Source of the DNA: Mayamaea pseudoterrestris
Taxonomy: Eukaryota; Bacillariophyta; Bacillariophyceae; Sellaphorales; Sellaphoraceae
Assembly: GCA_027923505.1 (NCBI GenBank)
Contig: BROI01000023.1
Location: 186,001-250,000 of the forward strand
Direction of reading: 5' to 3'
DNA length: 64,000 bases
Part shown: piece after piece, positions 1 through 48,750 of the stretch
How positions within the stretch are numbered: the first letter of the stretch is position 1
Layout: every line of letters begins with the position of its first letter
Position numbers and translations under genes: made by a program
Notes under the pieces: generated by a model
What the model saw: only the letters and a program-made list of their open reading frames with translations
Told to the model about the DNA's origin: nothing
The model's database searches: none

Positions 1-1494
1 CAGACCCTTGAATACAACAAACATGCAATTTAACATTGAATGGGACTGATAGTCTTGTCATTTTGGGTGTGGAACCCATCACCATGCCAGGAGACTCCGC
101 ACATTCAACAAATGGTTGAATGTGCCAGCAGGGTCCCCTTTTTGGCTACAGGAATCATCAGCATTGCGTGCCGAGCCCTCCAATCCCTTTCATTTCATGT
201 TTGTTGACATGATGGGCTAGGAATGTGGTTACATGCACCTCAGTATCCATCACCATGGATGCTATTAGTGATACTTGGCAGATCCAAAAACTTGTTGGAT
301 CTGCGAGCCATGCACCTCAGGTGGCAAGTCCAGCTGCCTGAATGGCCCACAGACCCTGGAATACAACAAACATGCAATTCAACAATGAATGGGGCTGATA
401 GTCTTGTCATGTTGGGTGTGGAACCCATCACCATGCCAGGAGGCAACACCGCACAATCAACAAATGGTTGAATGTGCCAACAGTGCCCCCTTTTTGGCTA
501 CAGGGATCATCAGCAATGCGTGCCGAGCCCTCCAATCCCTTTCAATTCATGTTTGTTGACATGATGGGCTAGGAATGTGGTTACATGCACCTCAGTATCC
601 ATCACCATGGATGCTATTGGTGATACGTGGCAGATCCAACAACTTGTTGGATCTGTGAGCCATGCACCTCAGGTGGCAAGTCCAGCTGCCTGAATGGGCC
701 ACAGACCCTGGAATACAACAAACATGCAATTCAACATTGAATGGGACTGATAGTCTTGTCATTTTGGGTGTGGAACCCATCACCATGCCAGGAGACACCG
801 CACATTCAACAAATGGTTGAATGTGCCAGCAGGGTCCCCTTTTTGGCTACAGGGATCATCAGCATTGCGTGCCAAGCCCTCCAATCCCTTTCAATTCATG
901 TTTGTTGACATGATGGGCTTGGAATGTGGTTACATGCACCTCAGTATCCATCACCATGGATGCTATTGGTGATACTTGGCAGATCCAACAACTTGTTGGA
1001 TCTGCGAGCCATGCACCTCAAGTGGCAAGTCTAGCTGCCTGAATGGCCCACAGACCCTGGAATACAACAAACATGCAATTCAACATTGAATGGGACTGAT
1101 AGTCTTGTCATTTTGGGTGTGGAACCCATCACCATGCCAGGAGACTCCGCACCTTTAACAAATTGTTGAATGTGCCAGCAGTGCCCCTTTTTGGCTACAG
1201 GGATCATCACCATTGCGTGCCGAGCCCTCCAATCCCTTTCAATTCATGTTTGTTGACATGATGGGCTAGGAATGTGGTTACATGCACCTCAGTATCCATC
1301 ACCATGGATGCTATTGGTGATACTTGGCAGATCCAACAACTTGTTGGATCTGCCAACCATGCACCTCAAGTGGCAAGTCCAGCTGCCTGAATGGCCCACA
1401 GACCCTGGAATACAACTAACATGCAATTCAATATTGAATGGGACTGGTAGTTTTGTCATTTTGGGTGTGAAACCCATCACCATGCCAGGAGACG
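1..1494. repeat. ~350-bp tandem repeat array, left edge cut by the window
   Basis: About 4.2 copies of a 348-352 bp unit. The landmark GAATGTGGTTACATGCACC recurs at 221, 573, 922 and 1270. Copies differ by scattered substitutions and small indels. Each unit holds three inverted repeats: 11-bp arms AGATCCAACAA around a central C, CACATTCAAC facing GTTGAATGTG, and ATCCAT facing ATGGAT. The last copy breaks off near 1494, and unique sequence leads to the next gene. Small reading frames on both strands only reflect the repeat and are not called as genes. The array may continue to the left of the window. Confidence 0.93.
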
Positions 1495-1669: not shown

Positions 1670-2635
1670 TTAAGGAATATAGTAGCCAGCATTTGCACTC
1701 TCATGAAGAGCCTCTCCCAATGGTTTGAAGAAAACAGGAGTTTCCTTGACCACTGAGAGGGACGTTACTTTTTCTTGTACAGCGAAGGCTGTTATCGCAA
1801 TCATTGCCAACCTGCCATTCTTGAGCTCCGCCAGCTGCATTCGCTTCTGTCCTTCCGTCTCCTTGAGGTAGAGTCCAAGCGGGTCGAAGCTGAGGTTGCC
1901 AGCAAAGTAGGAGGGGTTGTTGCTCTTGGCCTTGGAGATTCCGTACACGTCAATGGCCGCGGCAACTGTGAGAACAACGATCCAGTAAATAATGGGGCTG
2001 ACCTTTCCAAGCCCTCCGTTGAGGAGTGAGGGGGCGCGGCCGTCCACCCCAACCACTGGCGTGAGTCCAAGCGCGACGGCAATCTTCTTGTCCCAAAGTT
2101 TGCTGAGAGGCCAACCAGCGGCCGCCAACATGGCCTGTAATAAAGAGTCGCGAGGAATAAACATGAGTGAGATGTATGCATAAAGAATGCATTGTCTTGT
2201 TCGCAAGTATTGTGGGCAGGCACACACTCCCCAAAACCCCCAAACCGGAATCGAACCAAGGATAACCGGCTATATCACCTCTAAACACGCTGCTACTTTT
2301 CCGTCTGCTAGTGTACTATATGCTGCATACAAGGCACCATGCACTATGACAAGTAAAGGTATCGCTCTGGTTGCTGTTTTTCGTGTGCAACCTGCTACGT
2401 CCAAGGCAGCCTGACGCTCCATGAATGGAAGTGACTCGCTCATGCACAGCAATGACACTTTGGTTGGTTCCTGCATCTTGGGAGCAACTGGGACTAGCTC
2501 CTCCGGAAGAGTCGTTTCCTCATTCTTGGGAGTAATGTCCGTCATGCGAAGAGCTTGGTTCTTGGACATGGATTGCGACGTGAAAGCAGATGCGCCAGCT
2601 GACATGGCGAGGATGAGAGCAGCAGAGAACTTCAT
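1670..2635 (-). CDS. Fucoxanthin-chlorophyll a/c (LHC family) protein, atypical helix-1 region
   Basis: Light-harvesting antenna protein of the plastid. Exon 1 (2635-2399) starts with MKF, a hydrophobic signal peptide and the diatom-type cleavage site GASAF/T (residues 14-19), then a leader ending ESLPFMERQAALD, which is typical before the first LHC helix. The last exon (2134-1670) begins AMLAAAGWPL, has a middle membrane helix (IIYWIVVLTVAAAIDVYG) and the third LHC helix with the chlorophyll-binding motif ELKNGRLAM, and ends GYYIP. Splicing 2399 to 2134 (GTAGCA...TTACAG) keeps the frame and gives 233 residues, but lacks the first half of helix 1 with its usual E-x-K-H-x-R. The intron contains a GDIAG...WFD segment near 2250-2280 resembling the GDxGFDPL motif that normally precedes helix 1, but no clean exon. 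It may be an alternatively spliced, diverged or decaying copy. The family is sure; the exon model and subfamily (Lhcr-like) are uncertain. Confidence 0.72.
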
Positions 2636-2962: not shown

Positions 2963-3190
2963 TAAAGCACGACGAGATCGTTTACGAGTACCAATGAAAA
3001 CTGCGTCATGAAACTATATGAAACGAGTGCCAGTGTCAATTACGTCACACGGCAGTAGTATGAAACAACTGCAAGTGAAAACTGCGTCACAAGGTTATAG
3101 TATGAAACGACTGCCAGTGAAAACTGCGTCACAAGGCAATAACACGAAATGAGTGCCAGTGAAAACTGCATTTTTTGTACTGACGACTGA
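2963..3190 (+). promoter_or_regulatory. Promoter cassette A: four 40-bp-spaced ACGTCA/GCGTCA boxes
   Basis: Tandem units of about 42 bp with the shared words GAAACGAGTGCCAGTG and AAAACTGCGTCA. The boxes are GCGTCA at 3003, ACGTCA at 3042, GCGTCA at 3084 and GCGTCA at 3126. The last box lies 129 bp before the ATG of the DEAD-box helicase at 3255. The cassette is homologous from its first bases (TAAAGCACGACGAGATCG) to its last (GTACTGACG) to the longer one at 23538-23978. ACGTCA and TGACGC (the complement of GCGTCA) match the CO2/cAMP-responsive elements described for the Phaeodactylum PtCA1 promoter. A regulatory role is inferred. Confidence 0.65.
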
Positions 3191-3254: not shown

Positions 3255-5756
3255 ATGGCCATGGAGAACCTTTTTACGGCCGCCGACGCTTCGCTCGGAC
3301 TGAACATTGTTTCTGTTCCGGCAGAAAAGACTACGGTGGTCAGACGGGCCAAGAAGAAGAACAAGTACGAAAAGCGACGACGCAAGGCCAAGGAGGCGCA
3401 GCAAGATCATTCTGGATCAGCGACATTTCGGCAAAGTCATCGAGAGCTACACTCGCAGACAAATGCAGCAGCTGGAAAGGAAGAAGATCGAATAGAAGAA
3501 GAAAATGATGTTAATGATCATGAGAATACGGATGAAGAAGAGCATGCGGATGAGCTTGCGAATGCTTCCGACGAAAACGATGCCGACGACGAACCTTCAC
3601 CTTCACTAGACAACCAAAGCGAAATCGATGCAGCCGATGAATCGCCTCAACAAGAAAATCCATTATCAACAAATCACTTACCAGGAGACGAGGAAGAAAG
3701 GGCCAAATACCTAGCCGAGTTTCACGCCCGACCAATGGAGCTTGATCGTCGCGCCGGGGTATCAAGTCGATCACTCGCTCGCTCCAAAGATTCTACGCAT
3801 TTATTCACGGAAACATCCGACTGGAACGCCTTTTCTATTCTGCACCCCAAGATTGTTGATTGCCTGCAGAATCATCTCAAGCTTGACAAACCAACGGTCA
3901 TTCAGAGTCGTACCCTTCCAGCTTTTCTCCAAGGCGACCAAAAACACAATCTACTCATTCATTCCGAAACGGGAAGTGGCAAAACGCTGGCCTATCTTTT
4001 ACCTATTCTACAGTCCCTGGCAGTCAACCAAAACGACGGCCAACTCGACAAGCGCCAGCGCGATAAAGCTGGTACTCGATGCATTATACTTTGTCCCACA
4101 CGAGAACTCGCCTCACAAATACTCACCGTTGTGGAACAAGTTTGTTCACATACATTCAATTGGATTGTTGCGGGCTGCTTGCTGGGAGAGGAGCGACGCA
4201 AGTCGGAAAAGGCACGGATTCGCAAGGGTGTGACAATATTGGCGGCCACGCCGGGTCGCATGCTCGACCACTTGGCCAAGACGGAATGTTTGCTCATGGC
4301 ATGCAAGGGAAAGGTAGAGTGGTTGGTTTTGGACGAAGCGGATCGTTTGCTTGATCTAGGCTTGGGTGATCAAGTCAAGCAGATTGTCCAGCGACTTCGA
4401 GCGAATCAGCCTGGGTCGGGTCGCAATGGAATCACCTGGCGATCGGTTTTGATTTCTGCGACAATTACATCGCACGTGGAGACACTGGCCAAGGACACTA
4501 TGATTGGTGGCGACAATAGCTGGGTCTGGGTCAAGGGAGGAGAAGAGGTCGAAACAACGTTTGCCGACTCGACGCCGCGGCAAGTGTCCCAGAATGTGAT
4601 TACAGTCAGCGCCAAACTCAAGCTGGCCGCACTTGTGGCCTTTCTAGTTCAGCGTGCCAAAAAGGGCGAGAGCTCGGTCGTTTTCATGGACACTTGTGCT
4701 GCCGTAGACTTTTACCATGCGCTCTTTCTGTCCATGAGTTCCATTTTGAGTGGCTCGACGACCGCCAGTGACGCCGTTCCCAACGGAATATTTGGTCAGA
4801 CGTGCCCCTTCTACAAGCTTCACGGAAGCGTTCCACATGGAGAGCGGCAACAGATTCTTCGACGTTTTCTGAAGCGAACAGAAGAAAAGACGGCTGGAGT
4901 GCTTTTGGCGACGGATGTGGCAGCTCGTGGATTAAACTTGCCGGACGTTGATTGGACAATTCAGTATGATCCTCCCAGCGAAGTGGCCGATTATGTGCAT
5001 CGTACTGGCCGCGTTGGTAGAGCAGGTCGAAAGGGCCATTCACTCTTGTTTCTGCTGTCGTCGGAGCGAAGTTTTCTGGACGTCTTGAAGAAGCAAGGCG
5101 TGAAGAAGATGAATGCCGTTTCGTTAACGTCGACTTTGAACGCTGCTGCCTTGATATGCGAGCAACTCACGCAAATTGGTATGCGAAGATCTGGAGGGGG
5201 CTCCGGAGGCTTTGGCGGTCCAGCAAAGTCAAGCTCAACGGATCGTAAAGGCGAAGCGTTTTGCACCGAAGTTCAAAATCGCCTGGAGGATTGCATTGTC
5301 AAGGACGATGCCAAGGTTCACGAGGAGGCGAAAGCAGCCCGAAAGGAACTCACCAAGGGTCAGCGACGCCACAAACCGAAAGCTGTGACAGGCACATTAA
5401 TGGAATTGGCTCGCAATGCTTACATATCTCATTTGCGAGCCTATCCGACCAAGGAAAAGTCGTTGCGCAACATTTTCGCCACCAAGTCTCTACACTACGG
5501 CCACGTGGCCCGATCATTTGCATTGAAGGAACCACCGACAAAGCTTACGAAAGAAACAAAGACCCCTCAGGCTTTTGTCGACAAGGAGTCCAAGAAGCAG
5601 AACAAGAGAATGTCTTTTGATCAACCGGATGGCGATGCGCCTGTCGGTGAGCGCGTCGTCAAGAAGACCAGGCGTGAGGATTTGACGCCGTATCAAGCAA
5701 AGGTATTGCTCATGGCGAACGCTTCGAGACTTGAACAGCAAAGCAATAGTTATTAG
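3255..5756 (+). CDS. DEAD-box ATP-dependent RNA helicase, DBP7/DDX31 type
   Basis: An 833-residue nucleolar RNA helicase expected to act in 60S ribosomal subunit assembly. The start at 3255 (MAMENLF, context CAACATGG) is preferred over an in-frame ATG at 3153, which lies inside the repeated promoter cassette. An acidic and basic low-complexity N-terminus with a lysine/arginine-rich stretch near residue 30 is followed by the Q-motif region (WNAFSILHPKI), motif I SETGSGKT (about 235), PTRELASQ, TPGR, DEAD in VLDEADRLLDLG (about 360), SAT, and in the second RecA domain TDVAARGLNLPDVD, QYDPPSEVADYVHRTGR and GRAGRKG (about 580). QYDPP and the C-terminal block AYISHLRAYP...LHYGHVARSFALKEPP are features of DBP7/DDX31 rather than other DEAD-box families. 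A basic tail ends the protein. One uninterrupted exon. Confidence 0.92.
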   Translation: MAMENLFTAADASLGLNIVSVPAEKTTVVRRAKKKNKYEKRRRKAKEAQQDHSGSATFRQSHRELHSQTNAAAGKEEDRIEEENDVNDHENTDEEEHADELANASDENDADDEPSPSLDNQSEIDAADESPQQENPLSTNHLPGDEEERAKYLAEFHARPMELDRRAGVSSRSLARSKDSTHLFTETSDWNAFSILHPKIVDCLQNHLKLDKPTVIQSRTLPAFLQGDQKHNLLIHSETGSGKTLAYLLPILQSLAVNQNDGQLDKRQRDKAGTRCIILCPTRELASQILTVVEQVCSHTFNWIVAGCLLGEERRKSEKARIRKGVTILAATPGRMLDHLAKTECLLMACKGKVEWLVLDEADRLLDLGLGDQVKQIVQRLRANQPGSGRNGITWRSVLISATITSHVETLAKDTMIGGDNSWVWVKGGEEVETTFADSTPRQVSQNVITVSAKLKLAALVAFLVQRAKKGESSVVFMDTCAAVDFYHALFLSMSSILSGSTTASDAVPNGIFGQTCPFYKLHGSVPHGERQQILRRFLKRTEEKTAGVLLATDVAARGLNLPDVDWTIQYDPPSEVADYVHRTGRVGRAGRKGHSLLFLLSSERSFLDVLKKQGVKKMNAVSLTSTLNAAALICEQLTQIGMRRSGGGSGGFGGPAKSSSTDRKGEAFCTEVQNRLEDCIVKDDAKVHEEAKAARKELTKGQRRHKPKAVTGTLMELARNAYISHLRAYPTKEKSLRNIFATKSLHYGHVARSFALKEPPTKLTKETKTPQAFVDKESKKQNKRMSFDQPDGDAPVGERVVKKTRREDLTPYQAKVLLMANASRLEQQSNSY

Positions 5757-23537: not shown

Positions 23538-23978
23538 TAAAGCACGACGAGATCGTTTACGAGTGCCAATGAAAACTGCGTCATTAGGCTATATTATGAA
23601 ACGAGTTCCAGTGTCAGTTACGTCAAAGGCAATAGTTTAAAACGGGTGCCAGTGAAAACTGCGTCATAAGGCAATAGTGTGAAACGAGTGCCAGTGAAAA
23701 CAGCGTCACAAGGCAAAAACACGAAACGAGTGCCAGTGAAAACTGCGTCACTAAGCATTGATACGATTCGAGTACCAGTGCACCACGTCACTAGGCAATA
23801 GTATGAAACGAGTGCCAGTGTCAATTACGTCACAAGGCAATAGTATGAAACGAGTGCCAGTGTCAATTACGTCACAAGGCAATAGTATGAAACGGGTGCC
23901 AGTGAAAACTGCGTCATAAGGCAATAGTATGAAACGAGTGCCAGTGAAAACTGCGTCATTTTTGTGTACTGACGGACC
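23538..23978 (+). promoter_or_regulatory. Promoter cassette B: ten ACGTCA/GCGTCA boxes at ~42-bp spacing
   Basis: Ten tandem units. Boxes start at 23578, 23620, 23661, 23703, 23745, 23785, 23827, 23869, 23911 and 23953, so spacings are 40-42 bp, mostly exactly 42. Six boxes are GCGTCA and four are ACGTCA. Between boxes the unit keeps AGGCAATAGTATGAAACGAG and TGCCAGTG. The last box lies 91 bp before the ATG of the GHMP kinase fusion at 24044. The entry sequence (TAAAGCACGACGAGATCG) and exit sequence (GTACTGACG) are shared with cassette A at 2963. The hexamers equal known diatom CO2/cAMP-responsive elements; function here is inferred. Minus-strand frames through this repeat are by-products. Confidence 0.7.
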
Positions 23979-24043: not shown

Positions 24044-27000
24044 ATGGCAAGACCTTCTCGGCAGCCTCGTTCACTCATTGAAGTTATAGTTTCTACAGAC
24101 AATGACGTTCGCAACTCTTCGCTCTCCCACTACTGCGCGCTGGTGTCAACAAACTGTTTGCTCGAGCAATGCGTCGAGCTTGATGAATTTCGACGCACGT
24201 CAACAATCAACCTTTACGAACGCGTTCGCGCGTGCTTTTTTCTTTACGCAATTCATCGGTTTCACCTCGTCGATATTCCAGATAGTGGAGAGATTCCGTA
24301 TTCTGGCTACAAGTGTTTGCAGAATAGACAGTTTGAGCAAGCCATTGAGAATTTTCTAAACATTCATAACCAACGACCTTCCAAATCCATCAGCAGTGCG
24401 CTTGCCAAGGCCTACTACCACTTGGGCTTCCAACTACTAGCAAATCAAGTTCGACTTTCAGTCAAGAATCATCCTGGAAACTCGTGGATGTTTCAATTTC
24501 AGCTTGTTCAGGATCATCCGTACAACTTTCATCCAGACCTCCTCCAAGCGAACTGCAACGGAGGAAGCAAACGCTTCCTGCAAGAATCAACACCAGTACG
24601 CATGGATCTTTCGCACTGCGGATGGTCTGATATTTTCTTCCTTGGCATGGACTATCCCGAAGGTGCGCGTGTTTTGAATGCTTCGATTGACTTGTCGGTT
24701 TATGTGAATCATCAGCGCAACAATGGAGACGCAAAAGCAGCTAATGACAGCAATCAGCCGAAGCCTCCGATTGATACTATTTTGCAAGTTATTTCGGAAC
24801 CAGTCTTGCGACTAACGAGCATTGACTTGAAGTGCGAAGTCACATTGACGCTCATTTCGGAAGTGTTTGACTTTGCTAAGGACTACTTGGGACTGTTGCG
24901 CGCTGGTATCATTGCGTCGGGAATTGTTCCACTTGGTTTGGAAGACTCCAAGGCCCCACTGTCGGCACTGTTTGACAAGACAATTGGTTTAGGCAAAGGA
25001 GTGCATCTCATCACGCACGTCAATGACATTCCAAAGGGGTCGCGTTTGGCGGTATCAACAAACCTTTTGGCTTCCATCATTGCAGTCGGCATGCGAGCGA
25101 CCGGTCAAACTCAGCAATTAACTGGACCATTGACGGAGGATGAGCGACGCTTGGTAGCTGCGCGAGCTATATTAGGCGAATGGTTGGGAGGTTCCGGTGG
25201 CGGATGGCAGGATTCTGGTGGACTGTGGCCTGGACTAAAGCTTATTGAAGGTGTCCGAGCGGAAGAAAACGATCCAGAGCATGGGACGAGCCGAGGACGT
25301 TTGCTGCCGATGCATCGGCAGTTGAGTGACATTGAGGCCCCATCAACTCTACTGGAGGCTTTGCAGAACCATCTTGTACTTGTGCACGGAGGCATGGCGC
25401 AGAATGTGGGACCAGTGCTCGAAATGGTGACAGAAAAGTACCTTCTTCGTGAGTCGGATGAATGGCGAGCAAGGAACGAGGCACTCCTTATATTGGACGA
25501 TATATTAAAGGCATGCAAAGACAATGATGTTACTCGACTCGCAAAGTTGACCACGCGAAACTTCTTCGAGCCCGTCCAAACCATCATTCCTTGGGCCTCG
25601 AATGTGTATACTGAGACCATCATTTCGCGGACGCGTGAGGATTTTGGCGATGATTTTCTTGGTTTTTGGATGCTAGGTGGTTGCTCCGGTGGCGGCATGG
25701 GGTTTATTTTTAAACCCAGCGCCAGACAACGAGCTCTGGTCAGACTGCATGAGATTATTCTACACGCGAAGCGAGAACTGGAACATGCTCTGCCCTTTGC
25801 CATGGATCCATGCGTTTACAACTTTTCAATTAATCAACACGGTACAGTCGCTCAATTGCACGACGGTGCGCCACCGTCATGGATCAAGAACGGATCTACA
25901 TCGCCAGCATCAGAGGAGTCGGTATCGAACGGGGCTCTGGAGACACTGTTGAATGCGATTGGTTTTGATCGGGAGCAGCACGAAACTGTTCGCGCGCTGT
26001 ACCAGAACAGAAAGATTGGTTTGCGTCAAAACCGTCTACCGGTTAGCACTGAAATGAAAGACGTTTTACACAAGGATATTGTTACAACGAGTTGCATTTC
26101 GCCAGCGTTGCATGAGCGGGGCGTGGCCCTGATCCAAAACGGAGCAGTGGCGGTCGTTACATTAGCGGCCGGACTTGGAACCCGCTGGACACAAGGGGCA
26201 GGGTGCGTAAAAGCAATCCATCCTTTTTGTAAGCTGAACGGCAAGCATCGAACTTTTCTTGAGATTCATATCGCAAAGAGTCGTTGCATCTCAGAATTTG
26301 CTGGCGCTACCTTGCCAATGCCCCATATCATTACCACCAGCTTTTTGACGGACAAGCCAATCAAAGAATATTTGCATCGTTTTCAATGCCATGCTTATGC
26401 CGGGCCACTAATCGTTTCTTGTGGAACTGCTGTTGGCATCCGACTAATACCGACTGTCTCCGATCTCAATTTTAAGCACGAGCAAGAAGCCGTTCTTGAC
26501 AAACAAGCTCAAAAGGTCAAGGAAAGTTGCAATCGAGCCGCGAAATGCTGGGCAGAGTCATGCGGCCCGGCCAGCGACTATCGCGAAAATCTTCCATCAC
26601 AGTGCTTGCATCCAGTCGGACACTTTTGGGAAGTGCCGAACCTGCTTACCAATGGTACGCTACCACGTTTATTAGATGAACACCCGCAATTACAGTACTT
26701 GATGCTTCACAATATTGATACCGTTGGTGCAGACGTTGATCCAGCCATCTTGGGGCTCTTTGCCGACCGCGGCAGTGCTTTTGCGTTTGAGGTGATTCCT
26801 CGCCAAATCCAGGATGTGGGTGGAGGATTAGCTCGTGTGAACGGAAGGACGAGGCTCGTAGAAGGCCTGGCATGGCCGCGCGAGGAAGATGAATTTAAAT
26901 TCTCGTACTACAATAGTATGACTACATGGATCGATATCGACAAGATGCTGTACACCTTTAAACTAGACCGCGATGATCTCAGTGACGCGAGCAAAGTTTC

Positions 27001-27280
27001 TCACGCCGTCCATTCTTTTTCACTTCGGCTTCCAACGTACGTGGCGTTGAAAGATGTAAAGCGACGATGGGGCAATGGACACGAGGACGTGCTGCCAACA
27101 GCTCAGTTTGAGCAGCTATGGAGTGATATCACAAGTCTCGACGATGTCGACTGTGACTTTTTCTTGGTCCCCAGAACGAGGGGTGGTCAGTTGAAGGATG
27201 TTGCGCAACTTGATGGGTGGTTGCGTGACGGTTCAGCAAAACACTTGGAGTCCATTTGCGCATGGCCGGACAGTGAGTAA
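24044..27280 (+). CDS. Bifunctional GHMP sugar kinase-nucleotidyltransferase fusion
   Basis: A 1,078-residue single-exon protein. After a helical N-terminus (a possible TPR-like pair near residues 95-150) comes a GHMP-kinase region of the fucokinase kind: IPKGSRLAVSTNLLASII (about 330) and LGGSGGGWQDSGGLWPGLK (about 380), with a C-terminal GHMP motif in GGCSGGGMGFIFKP (about 545). From about 700 a UDPGP-like nucleotidyltransferase starts with VVTLAAGLGTRWTQGAGCVK, followed by PHIITTSFLTDK, HPVGHFWEVPNLL, LMLHNIDTVGADVDPAILG and a substrate region. Such a pair would phosphorylate a free sugar and then activate it to a nucleotide sugar. Plant L-fucokinase/GDP-fucose pyrophosphorylase has the two activities in the opposite order, so this is not a simple orthologue. 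The sugar is unknown. The start ATG at 24044 (ACCATGG) is close behind promoter cassette B. Confidence 0.8.
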   Translation: MARPSRQPRSLIEVIVSTDNDVRNSSLSHYCALVSTNCLLEQCVELDEFRRTSTINLYERVRACFFLYAIHRFHLVDIPDSGEIPYSGYKCLQNRQFEQAIENFLNIHNQRPSKSISSALAKAYYHLGFQLLANQVRLSVKNHPGNSWMFQFQLVQDHPYNFHPDLLQANCNGGSKRFLQESTPVRMDLSHCGWSDIFFLGMDYPEGARVLNASIDLSVYVNHQRNNGDAKAANDSNQPKPPIDTILQVISEPVLRLTSIDLKCEVTLTLISEVFDFAKDYLGLLRAGIIASGIVPLGLEDSKAPLSALFDKTIGLGKGVHLITHVNDIPKGSRLAVSTNLLASIIAVGMRATGQTQQLTGPLTEDERRLVAARAILGEWLGGSGGGWQDSGGLWPGLKLIEGVRAEENDPEHGTSRGRLLPMHRQLSDIEAPSTLLEALQNHLVLVHGGMAQNVGPVLEMVTEKYLLRESDEWRARNEALLILDDILKACKDNDVTRLAKLTTRNFFEPVQTIIPWASNVYTETIISRTREDFGDDFLGFWMLGGCSGGGMGFIFKPSARQRALVRLHEIILHAKRELEHALPFAMDPCVYNFSINQHGTVAQLHDGAPPSWIKNGSTSPASEESVSNGALETLLNAIGFDREQHETVRALYQNRKIGLRQNRLPVSTEMKDVLHKDIVTTSCISPALHERGVALIQNGAVAVVTLAAGLGTRWTQGAGCVKAIHPFCKLNGKHRTFLEIHIAKSRCISEFAGATLPMPHIITTSFLTDKPIKEYLHRFQCHAYAGPLIVSCGTAVGIRLIPTVSDLNFKHEQEAVLDKQAQKVKESCNRAAKCWAESCGPASDYRENLPSQCLHPVGHFWEVPNLLTNGTLPRLLDEHPQLQYLMLHNIDTVGADVDPAILGLFADRGSAFAFEVIPRQIQDVGGGLARVNGRTRLVEGLAWPREEDEFKFSYYNSMTTWIDIDKMLYTFKLDRDDLSDASKVSHAVHSFSLRLPTYVALKDVKRRWGNGHEDVLPTAQFEQLWSDITSLDDVDCDFFLVPRTRGGQLKDVAQLDGWLRDGSAKHLESICAWPDSE

Positions 27281-37362: not shown

Positions 37363-39454
37363 GTCTACTTCACGTTCAAACGTCCTGAACATGCATAAGC
37401 AAACCGACCAACTATGCGGCAGAAGTACCATGGCGAGGCAGAGGTTCCGCAGCGTCAATACCGGTAGGACTCAGCCAGCAGATGCCGTGAGATGCCGTGA
37501 CATTCAATTGCCCAAATAACATGCCATGTATATGCCCAAAGCACACCAGAATGGTGGCAGCTTCATTATTCAGTCTGTGCTACAAGAGGAAATGCCTGGC
37601 TGGTGTCTCAGGGGATGGCAATGTATTTGGTGACAACTTGTCACCAGTCTCAGCCCACAGATGCCGTGACATTCAAACGCCCCTACAGCAAGCCCTGTAG
37701 GTGCCCCAATTACACCAGAATGGTGCCAACATCATTATTCAGGCTGCGCTACAAGATGGTAGGCTTGGCTGGTGTCTCAGGGGATGGCAATGTATTTGGT
37801 GACAACTTGTTACCAGTCTCAGCCCGCCGATGCTGTCACATTTAAACGCCCCCACAGCAAGCCCTGTAGGTGCCCAAATCACACCAGAATGGTGCCAACA
37901 TCATTATTCCGGCTGCGCTACAAGATGGTAGGCTTGGCTGGTGTCTCAGGGGATGGCAATGTATTTGGTGACAACTTGTCACCAGTCTTAGCCCGCAGAT
38001 GCCGTGACATTCAAACGCCCCTAAAGCAAGCCCTGTAGGTTTCCAAATTACACCAGAATGGTGCCAACATCATTATTTAGGCTGCGCTACAAGATGGTAG
38101 GCTTGGCTGGTGTCTCAGGGAATGGCAATGTATTTGGTGACAACTTGTCACAAGTCTCAGCCAACAGATGCCCTGACATTCAAACGCCCCTACAGCAAAC
38201 CCTGTAGGTGCCCAAATTACACCAGAGTGGTACCAACATCATTATTTAGGCTGCGCTACAAGATGGTAGGCTTGGCTGGTGTCTCAGGGGATGGCAATGT
38301 ATTTGGTGACAACTTGTCACCAGTCTCAGCCCGCAGATGCCGTGATATTCAATTGCCCAAATAACATGCCATGTATATGCCCAAAGCACACCAGAATGGT
38401 GCCAACATCATTATGCATATTGCGCTACAAGATGGGTTGCTTGGCTGGTGTCTCAGGGGATGGCAATGTATTTGGTGACAACTTGTCACCAGTCTCAGCC
38501 CGCAGATGCCGTGACATTCAAACGCCCCTACAGCAAGCCCTGTAGGTGCCCAAATTACACCAGAATGGTGCCACCATCATTATTGAGGCTGTGCTACAAG
38601 ATGGTAGTCTTTGCTGGTGTCTCAGGGGATGCCAATGTATTTGGTGACAACTTGTCACCAGTCTCAGCCTGCAGATGCCGTGACATTCAAATGCCCCTAA
38701 AGCAAGCCCTGTAGGTTTCCAAATTACACCAGAATGATGCCAACATCATTGATCTAGCTGCGCTAAAAGATGGTATGCTTGGCTGGTGTCTCAGGGGATG
38801 GCATTGTATTTGGTGACAACTTGTCACCAGTCTCAGCCCACAGATGCCGTGACATTCAAATGCCCCTGCATCAAGCCCTGTAGGTGCCCAAATTACACCA
38901 GAATGGTGCCAACATTATTATTCCAGCTGCGCTACAAGATGTTAGGCTTGGCTGGTGTCTCAGGGGATGGCAATGTATTTGGTGACAACTTGTCACCAGT
39001 CTCAGCCCACAGATGCCGTGACATTCAAACGCCCTACAGCAAGCCCTGTAGGTGCCCAAATTACTCCAGAATGGTGCCAACATCATTTTTCCAGGTGCGC
39101 TACAAGATGGTAGGCTTGGCTGGTGTCTCAGGGGATGGCAATGTATTTGGTGACAACTTGTCACCAGTCTCAGCCCGCAGATGCCGTGACATTCAAACGC
39201 CCCTACAGCAAGCCCTGTAGGTGCCCAAATTACACCAGAATGGTGCCAACATCATTATTTAGGCTGCGCTACAAGATGGTAGGCTTGGCTGGTGTCTCAG
39301 GGGATGGCAATGTATTTGGTGACAACTTGTCACCAGTCTCAGCCCGCAGATGCCGTGACATTCAAATGCCCCTGCATCAAGCCCTGTAGGTGCCCAAATT
39401 ACACCAGAATGGTGCCAACATCATTATTCAGGCTGCGCTACAAAATGGTAGGCT

Positions 39455-42400
39455 TGGCTGGTGTCTCCGGTGATGGCAATGTATTTGGTGACAACTTGTC
39501 ACCAGTCTCAGCCCGCAGATGCCGTCACATTCAAACGCCCCTACAGCAAGCCCTGTAGGTGCCCCAATTACACCAGAATGGTGCCAACATCATTATTCAG
39601 GCTGCGCTACAAGATGGTAGGCTTGGCTGGTGTCTCAGGGGATGGCAATGTATTTGGTGACAACTTGTCACCAGTCTCAGCCCGCAGATGCCGTGACATT
39701 CAAACGCCCTACAGCAAGCCCTGTAGGTGCCCAAATTACACCAGAATGGTGCCAACATCATTATTCAGGTTGCGCTACAAGATGGTAGGCTTGGCTGGTG
39801 TCTAAGGGGATGGCAATGTATTTGATGACAACTTGTCACCAGTCTCAGCCCGCAGATGCCGTGACATTCAAACGCCCCTACAGCAAACCCTGTAGGTGCC
39901 CAAATTACACCAGAATGGTGCCAAAATCATTTTTTTTACTGCGCTACAAGATGGTAGGCTTGGCTGGTGTCTCAGGGGATGGCAATGTCTTTGGTGACAA
40001 CTTGTCACCAGTCTCAGCCCGCAGATGCCGTGACATTCAAACGCCCCTACAGCAAGCCATGTAGGTGCCCAAATTACACCAGAATGGTGCCAACATCATT
40101 TATCTAGCTGCGCTACATGATGGTAGGCTTGGCTGGTGTCTCAGAGGATGGCAATGTATTTGGTGACAACTTGTCACCAGTCTCAGCCCGCAGATGCCGT
40201 GACATTCAAACGCCCCCACAGCAAGCTCTGTAGGTGCCCAAATCACAACAGAATGGTGCCAACATCATTATTGAGGCTGTGCTACAAGATGGTAGGCTTG
40301 GCTGGTGTCTCAGGGGATGGCAATGTATTTGGTGACAACTTGTCACCAGTCTCAGCCCGCAGATGCTGTCACATTCAAACGCCCCTACAGCAAGCCCTGT
40401 AGGTGCCCAAATTACACCTGAATGGTGCCAACCCAACATCATTATTCATACTGCGCTACAAGATGGTAGGCTTGGCTGGTGTCTAAGGGGATGGCAATGT
40501 ATTTGGTGACAACTTGTCACCAGTCTCAGCCCGCAGATGCCATCACATTCAAATGCCCCTACAGCAAGCCCTGTTGGTGCCCAAATTACACAAGAATGGT
40601 GCCAACATCATCATTCAGGATGCGCTACAAGATGGTAGGCTTGGCTGGTGTCTCAGGGGATGGCAATGTATTTAGTGACAATTTGTCACCAGTCTCAGCC
40701 CGCAGATGCTGTCACTTTCTAACGCCCCTACAGCAAGCCCTGTAGGTGCCCAAATTATACCAGAATGGTGCCAACATCATTATATAGGCTGCGCTACAAG
40801 ATGGTATGCTTGGCTGGTGTCTCAGGGGATGGCAATGTATTTGGTGACAACTTGTCACCAGTCTCAGCCTGCAGATGCTGTCACATTCAAACGCTCCTAC
40901 AGCAAGCCCTGTAGGTTTCCAAATGACACCAGAATGGTGCCAACATGATTATTCATACTGCGCTATAAGATGGTAGGCTTGGCTGGTGTCTCAGGGGATG
41001 GCAATGTATTTGGTGACAACTTGTCACCAGTCTCAGCCCGCAGATGCCGTGACATTCAAACGCCACTACAGCAAGCCCTGTAGGTGCCCAAACTACACCA
41101 GATTGGTGCCCACATCATTGGGCATACTGCGCTACAAGATGGGATGCCTGGCTGGTGTCTCAGGGGATGGCAATGTATTTGGTGACAACTTGTCACCAGT
41201 CTCAGCCCGCAGATGCCGTGACATTCAAACGCCACTACAGCAAGCCCTGTAGGTGCCCAAATTACACCAGAATGGTGCCAACATCATTAATCAGGCTGAG
41301 CTACAAGATGGTATGCCTAGCTGGTGTCTCAGGGGATGGCAATGTATTTGGTGACAACTTGTCACCAGTCTCAGCCCGCCGATGCTGTCACATTCAAACG
41401 CCCCCACAGCAAGCCCTGTAGGTGCCCAAATCACACCAGAATGGTGCCAACATCATTATTCCGGCTGCGCTACAAGATGGTAGGCTTGGCTGGTGTCTCA
41501 GGGGATGGCAATGTATTTGGTGACAACTTGTCACCAGTCTCAGCCCACAGATGCCGTGACATTCAAACGCCCCTACAGCAAGCCATGTAGGTGCCCAGAT
41601 TACACCAGAATGGTGCCAACATCATTTATCTAGCTGCGCTACAAGATGGTATGCTTGGCTGGTGTCTCAGGGGATGGCAATGTATTTGGTGACAACTTGT
41701 CACCAGTCTCAGACCGCAGATGCCGTGACATTCAAACGCCCCTACAGCAAGCCCTGTAGGTGCCCAAATTACACCAGAATGGTGCCAACATCATTGGAAT
41801 AGGCTGCGCTACAAGATGGTAGGCTTGGCTGGTGTCTCAGGGGATGGCAATGTATTTGGTGACAACTTGTCACCAGTCTCAGCCTGCATGCCGTCACATT
41901 TAAACACCCCTACAGCAAGCCCTGTAGGTGACCAAATTACACCAGAATGGTGCCAATATCATTATGCCAGCTGCGGTACAAGTTGGTAGGCTTGGCTGGT
42001 GTCTCAGGGGATAGCAACGTATTTGGTGACAACTTGTCACCAGTCTCAGCCTGCAGATGCCGAGACGTTCAAACGCCCCTAAGCAAGCCCTGTAGGTGCC
42101 CCAATTACACCAGAATGGTGCCAACATCATTATTCAGGCTGCGCTACAAGATGGTATGCCTAGCTGGTGTCTTTGGGGATGGCAATGTGATTTATGACAG
42201 CTTGCCACCAATCTCAGCCAACAGATGCCATGACATTCAAATGCCCCTACAGCAAGCCCTGTAGGTGCCCAAATTACACCAAAATGGTGCCAACATCATT
42301 ATTCAGGTGTGCTACAAGATGGTAGGCTTTGCTGGTGTCTCAGCGGATGGCAATGTATTTGGTGACAACTTGTCACCAGTCTCAGCCCGCAAATGCCGTG

Positions 42401-44102
42401 ACATTCAAACACCCCTACAGCAAGCCCTGCAGGTTCCCAAATTACACCAGAATGGTGCCTTTATCATTATTCCGGCTGCGCTACAAGATGGTAGGCTTGG
42501 CTGGTGTCTCAGGGGATGGCAATGTATTTGGTGACAACTTGTCACCAGTCACAACCCGCAGATGCCGTGACATTCAAACACCCCTACAGCAAGCCCTGTA
42601 GGTGCCCAAATTACACCAAAATGGTGCCGACATCATTATTCATGCTGTGCTACAAGATAGATGGCTTTGCTGGTGTCTCAGGGGATGGCAATGTATTTGG
42701 TGACAACTTGTCACCAATCTCAGCCCACAGATGCTGTGACATTCAAACGCTCCTTCAGCAAGCCCTGTAGGTGCTCAAATTTCACCAGAATGGTGCCAAC
42801 ACCATTACAGTATTCCGACTGCGCCACAAGATGGTAGGCTTGGCTGGTATCTCAGTGGACGGCAATGTATTTGGTGACAACTTGTCACCAGTCTCAACCC
42901 ACAGATGCCGTGACATTCAAAACGCCCCTACAGCAAGCCCTGTAGGTGCTCAAATTACACCAAAATGGTTCCAACATCATTATTCATACTGCGCTACAAG
43001 ATGCTAGGCTTGGCTGGTGTCTTTGGGGATGGCAATGTATTTGGTGACAACTTGTCACCAGTCTCAGCCCACAGATGCCGTGACATTCAAACGCCCCTAC
43101 AGCAAGCCCGGTAGGTGCCCAAATTACACCAGAATGGTGCCAACATCATTATTCAGGCTGTGCTACAAGATGGGAGGCTTTGCTGGTGTCTCAGGGGATG
43201 GCAATGTATTTGATGACAACTTGTCACCAGTCTCAGCCCGCAGATGCCGAGACATTCAAACGCCCCTACAGCAAGCCCTGTAGGTGCCCAAATTACACCA
43301 GAATGGTGCCAACATCATTATTCAGGCTGCGCTACAAGATGGTATGCCTAGCTGGTGTCTTTGGGGATGGCAATGTATTTGGTGACAACTGGTCACCAGT
43401 CTCAGCCTGCAGATGCCGTCACATTCAAACGCCCCTACAGCAAGCCCTGTAGGTGCCCAAATTACACCAGAATGGTGCCAACATCATTTTCTAGCTGTGC
43501 TACAAGATGATAGGCTTGGCTGGTGTCTCAGGGGATGGCAATGTATTTGATGACAACTTGTCACCAGTCTCAGCCCGCAGATGCCGTGACATTCAAACGC
43601 CCCTACAGCAAGCCCTGTAGGTGCCCAAATTACACCAGAATGGTGCCAACATCATTATTCAGGCTGCGCTACAAGATGGTATGCCTAGCTGGTGTCTTTG
43701 GGGATGGCAATATATTTGGTGACAACTTGTCACCAGTATCAGCCCGTGGATGCTGTGACATTCAAACGCCCCTACAGCAAGCCCTGTAGGTGCTCAAATT
43801 ACACCAGAATGGTTCCAACATCATTATTCATACTGCGCTACAAGATGGTAGGCTTGGCTGGTGTCTCAGGGGATGGCAATGTATTTGGTGACAACTTGTC
43901 ACCAGTCTCAGCCCGCAGATGCCGTGACATTCAAACGCCCCTACAGCAAGCCCTGTAGGTGCCCCAATTACACCAGAATGGTGCCAACATCATTCTACAA
44001 TCTGCGCTACAAGATGATATGTCAAGCAGGTGTTCTTGTAGACTGTAATGTGATTGGTGACAAGTTGTCACAAGTCTCAGCCGAAGATGCCCTGTCATTC
44101 AA
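39455..44102. repeat. Satellite block, copy 1 of a 4,648-bp tandem duplication
   Basis: Identical by eye to 44103-48750, with one mismatch seen (39468 versus 44116). Even rare features match, such as the homopolymer before ACTGCGCTACAAG near 39930/44578 and the ACACCATTACAG insertion near 42798/47446. The block ends with an edge-type diverged monomer near 44000-44102. Confidence 0.9.
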
Positions 44103-47100
44103 TGGCTGGTGTCTCAGGTGATGGCAATGTATTTGGTGACAACTTGTCACCAGTCTCAGCCCGCAGATGCCGTCACATTCAAACGCCCCTACAGCAAGCC
44201 CTGTAGGTGCCCCAATTACACCAGAATGGTGCCAACATCATTATTCAGGCTGCGCTACAAGATGGTAGGCTTGGCTGGTGTCTCAGGGGATGGCAATGTA
44301 TTTGGTGACAACTTGTCACCAGTCTCAGCCCGCAGATGCCGTGACATTCAAACGCCCTACAGCAAGCCCTGTAGGTGCCCAAATTACACCAGAATGGTGC
44401 CAACATCATTATTCAGGTTGCGCTACAAGATGGTAGGCTTGGCTGGTGTCTAAGGGGATGGCAATGTATTTGATGACAACTTGTCACCAGTCTCAGCCCG
44501 CAGATGCCGTGACATTCAAACGCCCCTACAGCAAACCCTGTAGGTGCCCAAATTACACCAGAATGGTGCCAAAATCATTTTTTTTACTGCGCTACAAGAT
44601 GGTAGGCTTGGCTGGTGTCTCAGGGGATGGCAATGTCTTTGGTGACAACTTGTCACCAGTCTCAGCCCGCAGATGCCGTGACATTCAAACGCCCCTACAG
44701 CAAGCCATGTAGGTGCCCAAATTACACCAGAATGGTGCCAACATCATTTATCTAGCTGCGCTACATGATGGTAGGCTTGGCTGGTGTCTCAGAGGATGGC
44801 AATGTATTTGGTGACAACTTGTCACCAGTCTCAGCCCGCAGATGCCGTGACATTCAAACGCCCCCACAGCAAGCTCTGTAGGTGCCCAAATCACAACAGA
44901 ATGGTGCCAACATCATTATTGAGGCTGTGCTACAAGATGGTAGGCTTGGCTGGTGTCTCAGGGGATGGCAATGTATTTGGTGACAACTTGTCACCAGTCT
45001 CAGCCCGCAGATGCTGTCACATTCAAACGCCCCTACAGCAAGCCCTGTAGGTGCCCAAATTACACCTGAATGGTGCCAACCCAACATCATTATTCATACT
45101 GCGCTACAAGATGGTAGGCTTGGCTGGTGTCTAAGGGGATGGCAATGTATTTGGTGACAACTTGTCACCAGTCTCAGCCCGCAGATGCCATCACATTCAA
45201 ATGCCCCTACAGCAAGCCCTGTTGGTGCCCAAATTACACAAGAATGGTGCCAACATCATCATTCAGGATGCGCTACAAGATGGTAGGCTTGGCTGGTGTC
45301 TCAGGGGATGGCAATGTATTTAGTGACAATTTGTCACCAGTCTCAGCCCGCAGATGCTGTCACTTTCTAACGCCCCTACAGCAAGCCCTGTAGGTGCCCA
45401 AATTATACCAGAATGGTGCCAACATCATTATATAGGCTGCGCTACAAGATGGTATGCTTGGCTGGTGTCTCAGGGGATGGCAATGTATTTGGTGACAACT
45501 TGTCACCAGTCTCAGCCTGCAGATGCTGTCACATTCAAACGCTCCTACAGCAAGCCCTGTAGGTTTCCAAATGACACCAGAATGGTGCCAACATGATTAT
45601 TCATACTGCGCTATAAGATGGTAGGCTTGGCTGGTGTCTCAGGGGATGGCAATGTATTTGGTGACAACTTGTCACCAGTCTCAGCCCGCAGATGCCGTGA
45701 CATTCAAACGCCACTACAGCAAGCCCTGTAGGTGCCCAAACTACACCAGATTGGTGCCCACATCATTGGGCATACTGCGCTACAAGATGGGATGCCTGGC
45801 TGGTGTCTCAGGGGATGGCAATGTATTTGGTGACAACTTGTCACCAGTCTCAGCCCGCAGATGCCGTGACATTCAAACGCCACTACAGCAAGCCCTGTAG
45901 GTGCCCAAATTACACCAGAATGGTGCCAACATCATTAATCAGGCTGAGCTACAAGATGGTATGCCTAGCTGGTGTCTCAGGGGATGGCAATGTATTTGGT
46001 GACAACTTGTCACCAGTCTCAGCCCGCCGATGCTGTCACATTCAAACGCCCCCACAGCAAGCCCTGTAGGTGCCCAAATCACACCAGAATGGTGCCAACA
46101 TCATTATTCCGGCTGCGCTACAAGATGGTAGGCTTGGCTGGTGTCTCAGGGGATGGCAATGTATTTGGTGACAACTTGTCACCAGTCTCAGCCCACAGAT
46201 GCCGTGACATTCAAACGCCCCTACAGCAAGCCATGTAGGTGCCCAGATTACACCAGAATGGTGCCAACATCATTTATCTAGCTGCGCTACAAGATGGTAT
46301 GCTTGGCTGGTGTCTCAGGGGATGGCAATGTATTTGGTGACAACTTGTCACCAGTCTCAGACCGCAGATGCCGTGACATTCAAACGCCCCTACAGCAAGC
46401 CCTGTAGGTGCCCAAATTACACCAGAATGGTGCCAACATCATTGGAATAGGCTGCGCTACAAGATGGTAGGCTTGGCTGGTGTCTCAGGGGATGGCAATG
46501 TATTTGGTGACAACTTGTCACCAGTCTCAGCCTGCATGCCGTCACATTTAAACACCCCTACAGCAAGCCCTGTAGGTGACCAAATTACACCAGAATGGTG
46601 CCAATATCATTATGCCAGCTGCGGTACAAGTTGGTAGGCTTGGCTGGTGTCTCAGGGGATAGCAACGTATTTGGTGACAACTTGTCACCAGTCTCAGCCT
46701 GCAGATGCCGAGACGTTCAAACGCCCCTAAGCAAGCCCTGTAGGTGCCCCAATTACACCAGAATGGTGCCAACATCATTATTCAGGCTGCGCTACAAGAT
46801 GGTATGCCTAGCTGGTGTCTTTGGGGATGGCAATGTGATTTATGACAGCTTGCCACCAATCTCAGCCAACAGATGCCATGACATTCAAATGCCCCTACAG
46901 CAAGCCCTGTAGGTGCCCAAATTACACCAAAATGGTGCCAACATCATTATTCAGGTGTGCTACAAGATGGTAGGCTTTGCTGGTGTCTCAGCGGATGGCA
47001 ATGTATTTGGTGACAACTTGTCACCAGTCTCAGCCCGCAAATGCCGTGACATTCAAACACCCCTACAGCAAGCCCTGCAGGTTCCCAAATTACACCAGAA

Positions 47101-48750
47101 TGGTGCCTTTATCATTATTCCGGCTGCGCTACAAGATGGTAGGCTTGGCTGGTGTCTCAGGGGATGGCAATGTATTTGGTGACAACTTGTCACCAGTCAC
47201 AACCCGCAGATGCCGTGACATTCAAACACCCCTACAGCAAGCCCTGTAGGTGCCCAAATTACACCAAAATGGTGCCGACATCATTATTCATGCTGTGCTA
47301 CAAGATAGATGGCTTTGCTGGTGTCTCAGGGGATGGCAATGTATTTGGTGACAACTTGTCACCAATCTCAGCCCACAGATGCTGTGACATTCAAACGCTC
47401 CTTCAGCAAGCCCTGTAGGTGCTCAAATTTCACCAGAATGGTGCCAACACCATTACAGTATTCCGACTGCGCCACAAGATGGTAGGCTTGGCTGGTATCT
47501 CAGTGGACGGCAATGTATTTGGTGACAACTTGTCACCAGTCTCAACCCACAGATGCCGTGACATTCAAAACGCCCCTACAGCAAGCCCTGTAGGTGCTCA
47601 AATTACACCAAAATGGTTCCAACATCATTATTCATACTGCGCTACAAGATGCTAGGCTTGGCTGGTGTCTTTGGGGATGGCAATGTATTTGGTGACAACT
47701 TGTCACCAGTCTCAGCCCACAGATGCCGTGACATTCAAACGCCCCTACAGCAAGCCCGGTAGGTGCCCAAATTACACCAGAATGGTGCCAACATCATTAT
47801 TCAGGCTGTGCTACAAGATGGGAGGCTTTGCTGGTGTCTCAGGGGATGGCAATGTATTTGATGACAACTTGTCACCAGTCTCAGCCCGCAGATGCCGAGA
47901 CATTCAAACGCCCCTACAGCAAGCCCTGTAGGTGCCCAAATTACACCAGAATGGTGCCAACATCATTATTCAGGCTGCGCTACAAGATGGTATGCCTAGC
48001 TGGTGTCTTTGGGGATGGCAATGTATTTGGTGACAACTGGTCACCAGTCTCAGCCTGCAGATGCCGTCACATTCAAACGCCCCTACAGCAAGCCCTGTAG
48101 GTGCCCAAATTACACCAGAATGGTGCCAACATCATTTTCTAGCTGTGCTACAAGATGATAGGCTTGGCTGGTGTCTCAGGGGATGGCAATGTATTTGATG
48201 ACAACTTGTCACCAGTCTCAGCCCGCAGATGCCGTGACATTCAAACGCCCCTACAGCAAGCCCTGTAGGTGCCCAAATTACACCAGAATGGTGCCAACAT
48301 CATTATTCAGGCTGCGCTACAAGATGGTATGCCTAGCTGGTGTCTTTGGGGATGGCAATATATTTGGTGACAACTTGTCACCAGTATCAGCCCGTGGATG
48401 CTGTGACATTCAAACGCCCCTACAGCAAGCCCTGTAGGTGCTCAAATTACACCAGAATGGTTCCAACATCATTATTCATACTGCGCTACAAGATGGTAGG
48501 CTTGGCTGGTGTCTCAGGGGATGGCAATGTATTTGGTGACAACTTGTCACCAGTCTCAGCCCGCAGATGCCGTGACATTCAAACGCCCCTACAGCAAGCC
48601 CTGTAGGTGCCCCAATTACACCAGAATGGTGCCAACATCATTCTACAATCTGCGCTACAAGATGATATGTCAAGCAGGTGTTCTTGTAGACTGTAATGTG
48701 ATTGGTGACAAGTTGTCACAAGTCTCAGCCGAAGATGCCCTGTCATTCAA
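44103..48750. repeat. Satellite block, copy 2 of the 4,648-bp tandem duplication
   Basis: Follows copy 1 directly. The join at 44102/44103 is out of register: a diverged monomer breaks off after CTGTCATTCAA and the next begins at TGGCTGGTGTCTC, missing about 85-90 bp of one monomer. Copy 2 runs on at its right end into the natural, degenerate array edge. Confidence 0.9.

What the first reader, a model, noticed from the sequence alone, without database searches (positions are those of the whole stretch)
23538..23978. Two unrelated genes share a homologous tandem promoter of CO2/cAMP-type boxes
The cassettes at 2963-3190 and 23538-23978 share entry, unit and exit sequence, and each stands just before an ATG (a rRNA helicase and a sugar kinase/nucleotidyltransferase). 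Nothing else in the two genes is alike, so the regulatory block itself was copied or moved. The units carry ACGTCA or GCGTCA, matching the CCRE2 and CCRE3 elements described for the Phaeodactylum PtCA1 promoter. It may be a portable promoter that puts genes under common CO2/light/cAMP control.
Basis: partly seen in the sequence, partly recalled or inferred. Interest (0 to 1): 0.78.

Follow-up and report, generated by a model that had tools for sequence, protein, structure and literature searches.

The report
Repeat arrays shared by many promoters
A 42-base repeat, stacked in blocks of about four or eight copies, sits near the starts of many unrelated genes in this alga-like genome, often between two genes that point away from each other, and its nearly unchanging letters suggest that it is a shared docking site for proteins that control genes.

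Summary
The two window arrays (2963-3190, 23538-23978) belong to a genome-wide family: 836 exact copies of a 12-base core (reversed-pattern control 1) in an estimated 180-190 arrays in 30.6 Mb. In 53 arrays examined, 296 of 369 spacings are 42 bp. Sizes cluster at 4-5 and 7-12 units, none of 6. In 13 of 23 arrays of 8-9 units the most aberrant linker is the one after unit 4. Two blocks (AAAC..TGCCAGTG and CGTCA) stay nearly invariant while parts of the linker drift, so they look selected. Of 46 classifiable arrays 32 lie between divergent genes, 13 in tandem and 1 in convergent regions. ACCATG words face outward 36:5 within 100 bp. Neighbouring genes are mostly unrelated (40 of 74 ORFs with Pfam hits). 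Best reading: a dispersed protein-binding promoter module, mostly in bidirectional promoters. CGTCA matches the letters of diatom CO2/cAMP elements. Three of the 40 identified neighbours are photosynthetic or Calvin-cycle type and none is a carbon-concentrating gene; no expression data were available. The divergent-gene bias weakens when intergenic length is weighted (p 3e-8 to 0.09).

The parts
2963..3190 (+). Array 1: degenerate entry unit, 4 further cores, exit TTTTTTGTACTGACG
23538..23978 (+). Array 2: degenerate entry unit, 9 further cores, exit TTTTTGTGTACTGACG
2964..2988 (+). Entry 25-mer, shared only with array 2 in the genome (up to 3 mismatches)
23539..23563 (+). Entry 25-mer, shared only with array 1 in the genome (up to 3 mismatches)
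3255..5756 (+). Gene downstream of array 1: DEAD-box helicase
1673..2635 (-). Gene divergent from array 1: light-harvesting protein. ORF 1673-2164 hits PF00504; ORF 2270-2635 (MKFSAALILAMSAGASAF..) has no Pfam hit and is taken as its N-terminal exon by inference; the junction is not determined
24044..27280 (+). Gene downstream of array 2: 1078 aa, UDPGP domain match at residues 842-968

Best explanation
The arrays are copies of one dispersed cis-regulatory module that works as a protein-binding platform in promoters, chiefly bidirectional ones. Shown here: dispersal, 42-bp phasing, constrained blocks, sizes of about 4 or about 8 units with an odd linker after unit 4 in many, and position near predicted gene starts. 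Inferred: each unit binds an unknown factor at AAACGAGTGCCAGTG and a CRE/bZIP-type factor at (A/G)CGTCA. A 42-bp step is four helical turns, so bound proteins would repeat on one face of the DNA and could bind cooperatively. A four-unit block (168 bp, about one nucleosome) would keep the shared promoter open and drive transcription outward to one or both sides. Blocks spread by copying, sometimes with flank, and grew by tandem duplication of several units. The inducing signal is unknown; CO2/cAMP or light is possible but not shown.
For: 836 exact core hits against 1 in the control. About 180 arrays, scaled from 31 arrays holding 75 of 440 adjacent core pairs on contigs C1-C5, counted by hand from the listing. 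42 bp in 296 of 369 spacings, 41-43 in 348. In 199 internal units located from their neighbours (array L004 left out, only units whose neighbours are exactly 84 bp apart) the 16-base core has 0-2 mismatches in 195 and CGTCA is exact in 178, while four linker positions fall to 50-66%. Sizes of 53 arrays: 4-5 units 11, 7-12 units 39, none of 6, and one each of 2, 3 and 24. In 13 of 23 arrays of 8-9 units the most aberrant linker is uniquely after unit 4, p about 1e-6. L061 (after unit 4) and L028 (after unit 5) carry a copy of their own 5' flank inside the array; L076 and L002 repeat blocks of 4 and 6 units; the two flanks of L058 share 52 bp at 87%. Neighbours: 32 divergent, 13 tandem, 1 convergent of 46; 7 more of 53 could not be classed. 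Nearest coding ORF points outward in 81 of 97 (tests). ACCATG within 100 bp of the edges: 36 outward against 5 inward, p 8e-7, in 30 and 5 of 106 flanks. Flank shared across contigs near the array: L068/L071 and L044/L071. bZIP matches exist: 19, 14 over cut-off.
Against: No expression, chromatin or binding data. The divergent bias depends on the null: Fisher p 4e-4 by number of intergenic regions against the window (8 of 30, its own two arrays included), but p from 3e-8 to 0.09 when weighted by intergenic length under three gene-calling thresholds and two baselines. Gene calls are ORFs with a codon score, without intron models. Most ACCATG words open only short frames, so they are not all start codons. 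In tandem cases the array does not prefer one orientation (9 '++', 4 '--'). Parts of the linker (AGGC, TA) are also 92-97% conserved, and some variable positions reflect two unit types rather than drift. No single function among neighbours. Copying with flank is shown for few arrays; flanks of most arrays share nothing, and units do not match by position between arrays.
Confidence: 0.54

Rival explanations
1. A mobile minisatellite-bearing element that inserts into open promoter DNA and has no role in transcription.
For: Many dispersed copies at mostly unrelated genes; uneven spread, for example every exact core on C1 lies beyond 2.248 of 2.995 Mb; promoters are common open targets (established knowledge).
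Against: No target-site duplication: longest word shared by the two 25-base flanks 4.08 on average against 4.24 for mismatched pairs, 53 arrays. Blocks conserved while other positions vary. None of the 40 array-facing ORFs with a Pfam hit is a transposase; one (L076) hits an aspartyl-protease family and, below cut-off, a gag-type one; 34 ORFs had no hit.
Confidence: 0.18
2. An insulator or general-regulatory-factor site that keeps two head-to-head genes independent or keeps nucleosomes away, without activating them.
For: Between divergent genes in 32 of 46, as recalled for BEAF-32 sites in Drosophila; mixed housekeeping neighbours; no orientation preference in tandem cases (9 '++', 4 '--').
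Against: 13 of 46 arrays lie in tandem intergenic regions, array 2 among them; CGTCA letters are those of an activating element in a diatom.
Confidence: 0.14
3. One reading: a CO2/light/cAMP (CCRE) regulon carried on a portable promoter.
For: ACGTCA in 86 and GCGTCA in 90 of 199 units; CCRE letters confirmed in passages of two papers; bZIP matches; a light-harvesting gene beside array 1, a phosphoribulokinase beside L046 and a ribulose-phosphate 3-epimerase-like gene beside L028. I raised this rival from 0.07 to 0.10 after the last two were identified.
Against: 37 of 40 identified neighbours have no such link and none is a carbon-concentrating protein; the letters are short; the other constrained block is not part of a CCRE; the species is not identified.
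Confidence: 0.1
4. Iteron-like replication origins placed in divergent promoters.
For: Phased repeats and divergent intergenic position; the estimated number would give one per about 160 kb.
Against: Very uneven along contigs: the first 2.2 Mb of C1 has no exact core; no direct evidence.
Confidence: 0.06

Closest known systems
CO2-cAMP-responsive elements (CCRE1-3) of the Phaeodactylum PtCA1 promoter (PMC7378808, PMC4915529, passages)
   Same: The letters ACGTCA and TGACGC (reverse of GCGTCA) occur in most units.
   Different: Here one CGTCA per 42 bp in arrays of mostly 4-12 units, joined to a second constrained block, near mostly unrelated genes; CO2 response untested.
BEAF-32-type sites between head-to-head genes in Drosophila (recalled; one search gave only a search listing)
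   Same: Binding sites between divergent housekeeping genes.
   Different: Different motif, regular long arrays, other lineage; boundary activity untested.
Minisatellites / variable tandem repeats in promoters (PMC3899988, start of abstract in a listing)
   Same: Head-to-tail 42-bp units at gene starts.
   Different: One family shared by an estimated 180-190 loci with a common architecture and constrained blocks, not locus-private expansions.
Transposon-spread transcription-factor sites (recalled)
   Same: Dispersed copies of a regulatory-looking sequence at unrelated genes.
   Different: No target-site duplication found and no transposase among identified neighbours.

Membership tests
CCRE-type CO2/cAMP promoter | TGACGT / ACGTCA / TGACGC elements near the transcription start | tested here: inconclusive
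   Letters present in most units; transcription starts unknown.
CCRE-type CO2/cAMP promoter | Response to CO2 and cAMP | not testable with these tools
   No expression data; organism unnamed.
CCRE-type CO2/cAMP promoter | Drives carbon-concentrating genes | tested here: not met
   0 of 40 Pfam-identified neighbours (74 ORFs scanned of 77 called, 53 arrays); 3 are photosynthetic or Calvin-cycle type. About 130 arrays were not examined.
Tandem repeat (minisatellite) | Head-to-tail units of 10-100 bp | tested here: met
DNA transposon / MITE | Target-site duplication | tested here: not met
   53 arrays; word shared by the 25-base flanks no longer than in mismatched pairs. Array ends are somewhat uncertain.
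DNA transposon / MITE | Terminal inverted repeats | not tested
   No dedicated test; one array (L043) is followed by an inverted array.
Insulator between head-to-head genes | Location between divergent promoters | tested here: inconclusive
   32 of 46 divergent, but significance depends on the length-weighted null.
Insulator between head-to-head genes | Boundary or enhancer-blocking activity | not testable with these tools
   Needs Hi-C or a reporter assay.

The most novel reading that the evidence does not exclude
The genome uses a transposable, nucleosome-sized promoter module: four phased 42-bp double binding sites (168 bp), or two such modules joined, which can be copied as a block into or over shared promoters and by itself defines a bidirectional promoter at an estimated 180-190 loci, independent of gene function.
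Probability: 0.28. Interest if true: 0.82.

Novelty: new variant of a known kind. Interest (0 to 1): 0.62.

Why it matters
If the arrays are promoters, a single repeat family ties together the transcription of a few hundred mostly unrelated genes in one alga, and its regular design (about 4 or 8 units, four helical turns apart) makes cooperative binding and array-length effects directly testable. It would be a clear natural case of promoters copied as modules, and a ready bidirectional promoter part for algal work. If they are insertions without function, they still mark which promoters are open to insertion.

Tried and rejected
Target-site duplications: none found. Matching of units by position between arrays (31 arrays of 8-10 units): only a weak signal, 0.776 identity at offset 0 against 0.761 at offsets 3-4 and 0.780 at offset 6, so most arrays are not simple copies of one master array. 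A composite exit 25-mer searched genome-wide with up to 3 mismatches: no hit; it fits neither window exit closely enough, so this says nothing about the exits elsewhere. ACCATG as a general core-promoter motif of this genome: no clear excess upstream of 24 predicted window genes. ACCATG as true start codons: most open short frames. Exact unit pattern in viral contigs: 0 matches. Rfam on the window at gathering scores: none. Species: the 18S search failed twice with a machine error; RuBisCO large subunit was not found in the contigs; one paper search by assembly figures and passages of a long-read diatom paper did not name the genome. A light-harvesting protein from contig C10 has, after multi-domain LHCI chains, FCP/LI818-type chains among its best PDB hits, and the ORF at 2270-2635 carries an ASAF-like presequence (meaning recalled); together they suggest an alga with a secondary red plastid, no more. 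Prior reports: the listings (15 of 606 shown) held nothing that matched this family by title or start of abstract; most subscription papers are not in that library.

Full report
What is there. Both window arrays exist as described. A 42-bp unit, roughly CAtaAGGCAATAGTAy-GAAACGAGTGCCAGTG-nnAAnTnCGT, is repeated head to tail, 5 cores in array 1 and 10 in array 2, counting a degenerate first unit. A 25-mer of the entry is common to these two arrays only, so the pair, 20.6 kb apart, is a special local copy. Array 1 lies between a light-harvesting gene on the reverse strand (PF00504 in ORF 1673-2164; ORF 2270-2635 is taken as its N-terminal exon by inference) and a DEAD helicase gene (ATG 3255). 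Array 2 lies before a 1078-aa protein with a UDPGP domain.

It is a family. A 24-mer of the unit occurs 686 times with up to 3 mismatches (reversed control 0), and the 12-mer core 836 times exactly (control 1). Adjacent core pairs number 440; on contigs C1-C5, 75 pairs fall in 31 arrays by my count of the listing, which scales to about 180 arrays. I studied 53 arrays: 27 in 4-kb loci, 10 in 2.5-2.8-kb loci, and 16 from search loci. They were picked from the listings, so well-conserved arrays are over-represented, and roughly 130 arrays were not seen.

Anatomy. Of 369 spacings 296 are 42 bp and 348 are 41-43. Sizes are 4-5 units in 11 arrays and 7-12 in 39, none of 6, with one each of 2, 3 and 24. 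There are two unit types, ending AAAACTGCGTCA (A) and TCAATTACGTCA (B). In 31 arrays of 8-10 units B is the first unit in 16 but unit 4 or 5 in only 4 and 3. In 13 of 23 arrays of 8-9 units the most aberrant linker is uniquely the one after unit 4 (about 3 expected). L061 at that point, and L028 after unit 5, repeat their own 5' flank; L076 and L002 repeat blocks of 4 and 6 units; and the two flanks of L058 share 52 bp at 87%. So some long arrays grew by duplicating several units, at times with flank. On the 3' side the array ends within one base of CGTCAT in 22 of 53.

Constraint. I took 199 internal units from the positions of their neighbours, using only units whose neighbours are exactly 84 bp apart and leaving out L004. 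Core positions AAAC and TGCCAGTG are 96.5-99.5% conserved and CGTCA is exact in 178; one unit has lost its core. Four linker positions drop to 50-66% and several carry all four bases, while AGGC and TA in the linker stay at 92-97%. Units inside an array are about as alike (0.782 identity) as units of different arrays (0.72-0.78 by offset), so most arrays are not freshly made. Selective keeping of the two blocks is the simplest account, but part of the variable positions reflects the A/B types.

Position. By codon-scored ORFs, 32 of 46 classifiable arrays lie between divergent genes, 13 in tandem and 1 in convergent regions; 7 of the 53 could not be classed. The window has 8 divergent of 30 intergenic regions, its own arrays included (Fisher p 4e-4). 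This is weaker than it looks: divergent regions are long here, and with length weighting p runs from 3e-8 to 0.09 with the calling threshold and baseline. Nearest coding ORFs point outward in 81 of 97 cases, p between 5e-7 and 0.05 under nulls of 0.60-0.76. An independent sign: within 100 bp of the array edges ACCATG faces outward 36 times and inward 5 times (30 and 5 of 106 flanks; one flank of L066 holds three), while at 200-400 bp it is 9 against 6. Some of these are start codons; most open short frames. Among tandem cases the array points to the gene in 9 and away in 4, no clear preference.

Neighbours. Of 77 array-facing ORFs called I scanned 74; 40 have a Pfam hit at E up to 0.001, a few of them below the curated cut-off: cullin, DEAD helicases, RPA1, aconitase, pseudouridine and dihydrouridine synthases, guanylate kinase, tubulin-like, poly(A) polymerase, ribosomal L19, zinc transporter and others. 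Three touch photosynthesis or carbon fixation: the light-harvesting gene of array 1, a phosphoribulokinase (NCBIfam 371 bits, cut-off 236) beside L046, and a ribulose-phosphate 3-epimerase-like protein beside L028 (below the NCBIfam cut-offs). None of the 40 is a carbonic anhydrase or bicarbonate transporter. Only 3 pairs of ORFs are similar to each other.

Spread. No target-site duplication. Flanks are mostly unrelated, but L068/L071 (38 bp, 95%) and L044/L071 (125 bp, 78%) share flank within 160 bp of the array on different contigs, and L039 and L041, on C3 and C5, share the same linker after unit 4. So blocks have been copied in some cases; the mechanism is unknown. Copies are uneven: on C1 every exact core lies beyond 2.248 of 2.995 Mb.

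Judgement. The CO2/cAMP label rests on letters that do match and on 3 of 40 neighbours; it is possible and not shown. I judge a protein-binding promoter module, mostly in bidirectional promoters, the most likely; an inert insertion, an insulator and an origin remain open.

Noticed in passing
window 37490-48750: An 11.3-kb satellite of 169-bp units (about 66 copies) with a 338-bp period also reported; neither is a multiple of three, so it is unlikely to be coding.
   Followed up: no
window 1-1493: 4.3 copies of a 349-bp repeat at 95% match reaching the left end of the window; CACCATGG recurs in it at 251, 603, 952 and 1300.
   Followed up: no
L043 (G000:C4 near 421,667-421,954): Two arrays of the same family lie next to each other in opposite orientation in one divergent intergenic region.
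   Followed up: partly
L004 (G000:C9:37,750-38,780): A 24-unit, almost identical all-B array, apparently a recent expansion.
   Followed up: no
G000:C9:782,162-801,395: Two pairs of array hits, each 9,078 bases apart and 10,090 bases from the other pair, suggest a tandem segmental duplication carrying arrays.
   Followed up: no
flanks of arrays, for example L012, L051, L061, L062, L068: TC(C/G)ACCATG(A/G)-like words face outward 20-100 bp from array edges and often start only short frames; perhaps a core-promoter or upstream-ORF signal.
   Followed up: partly
L046 and L028: Array-facing genes for a phosphoribulokinase and a ribulose-phosphate 3-epimerase-like protein, the only Calvin-cycle-type neighbours seen.
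   Followed up: partly
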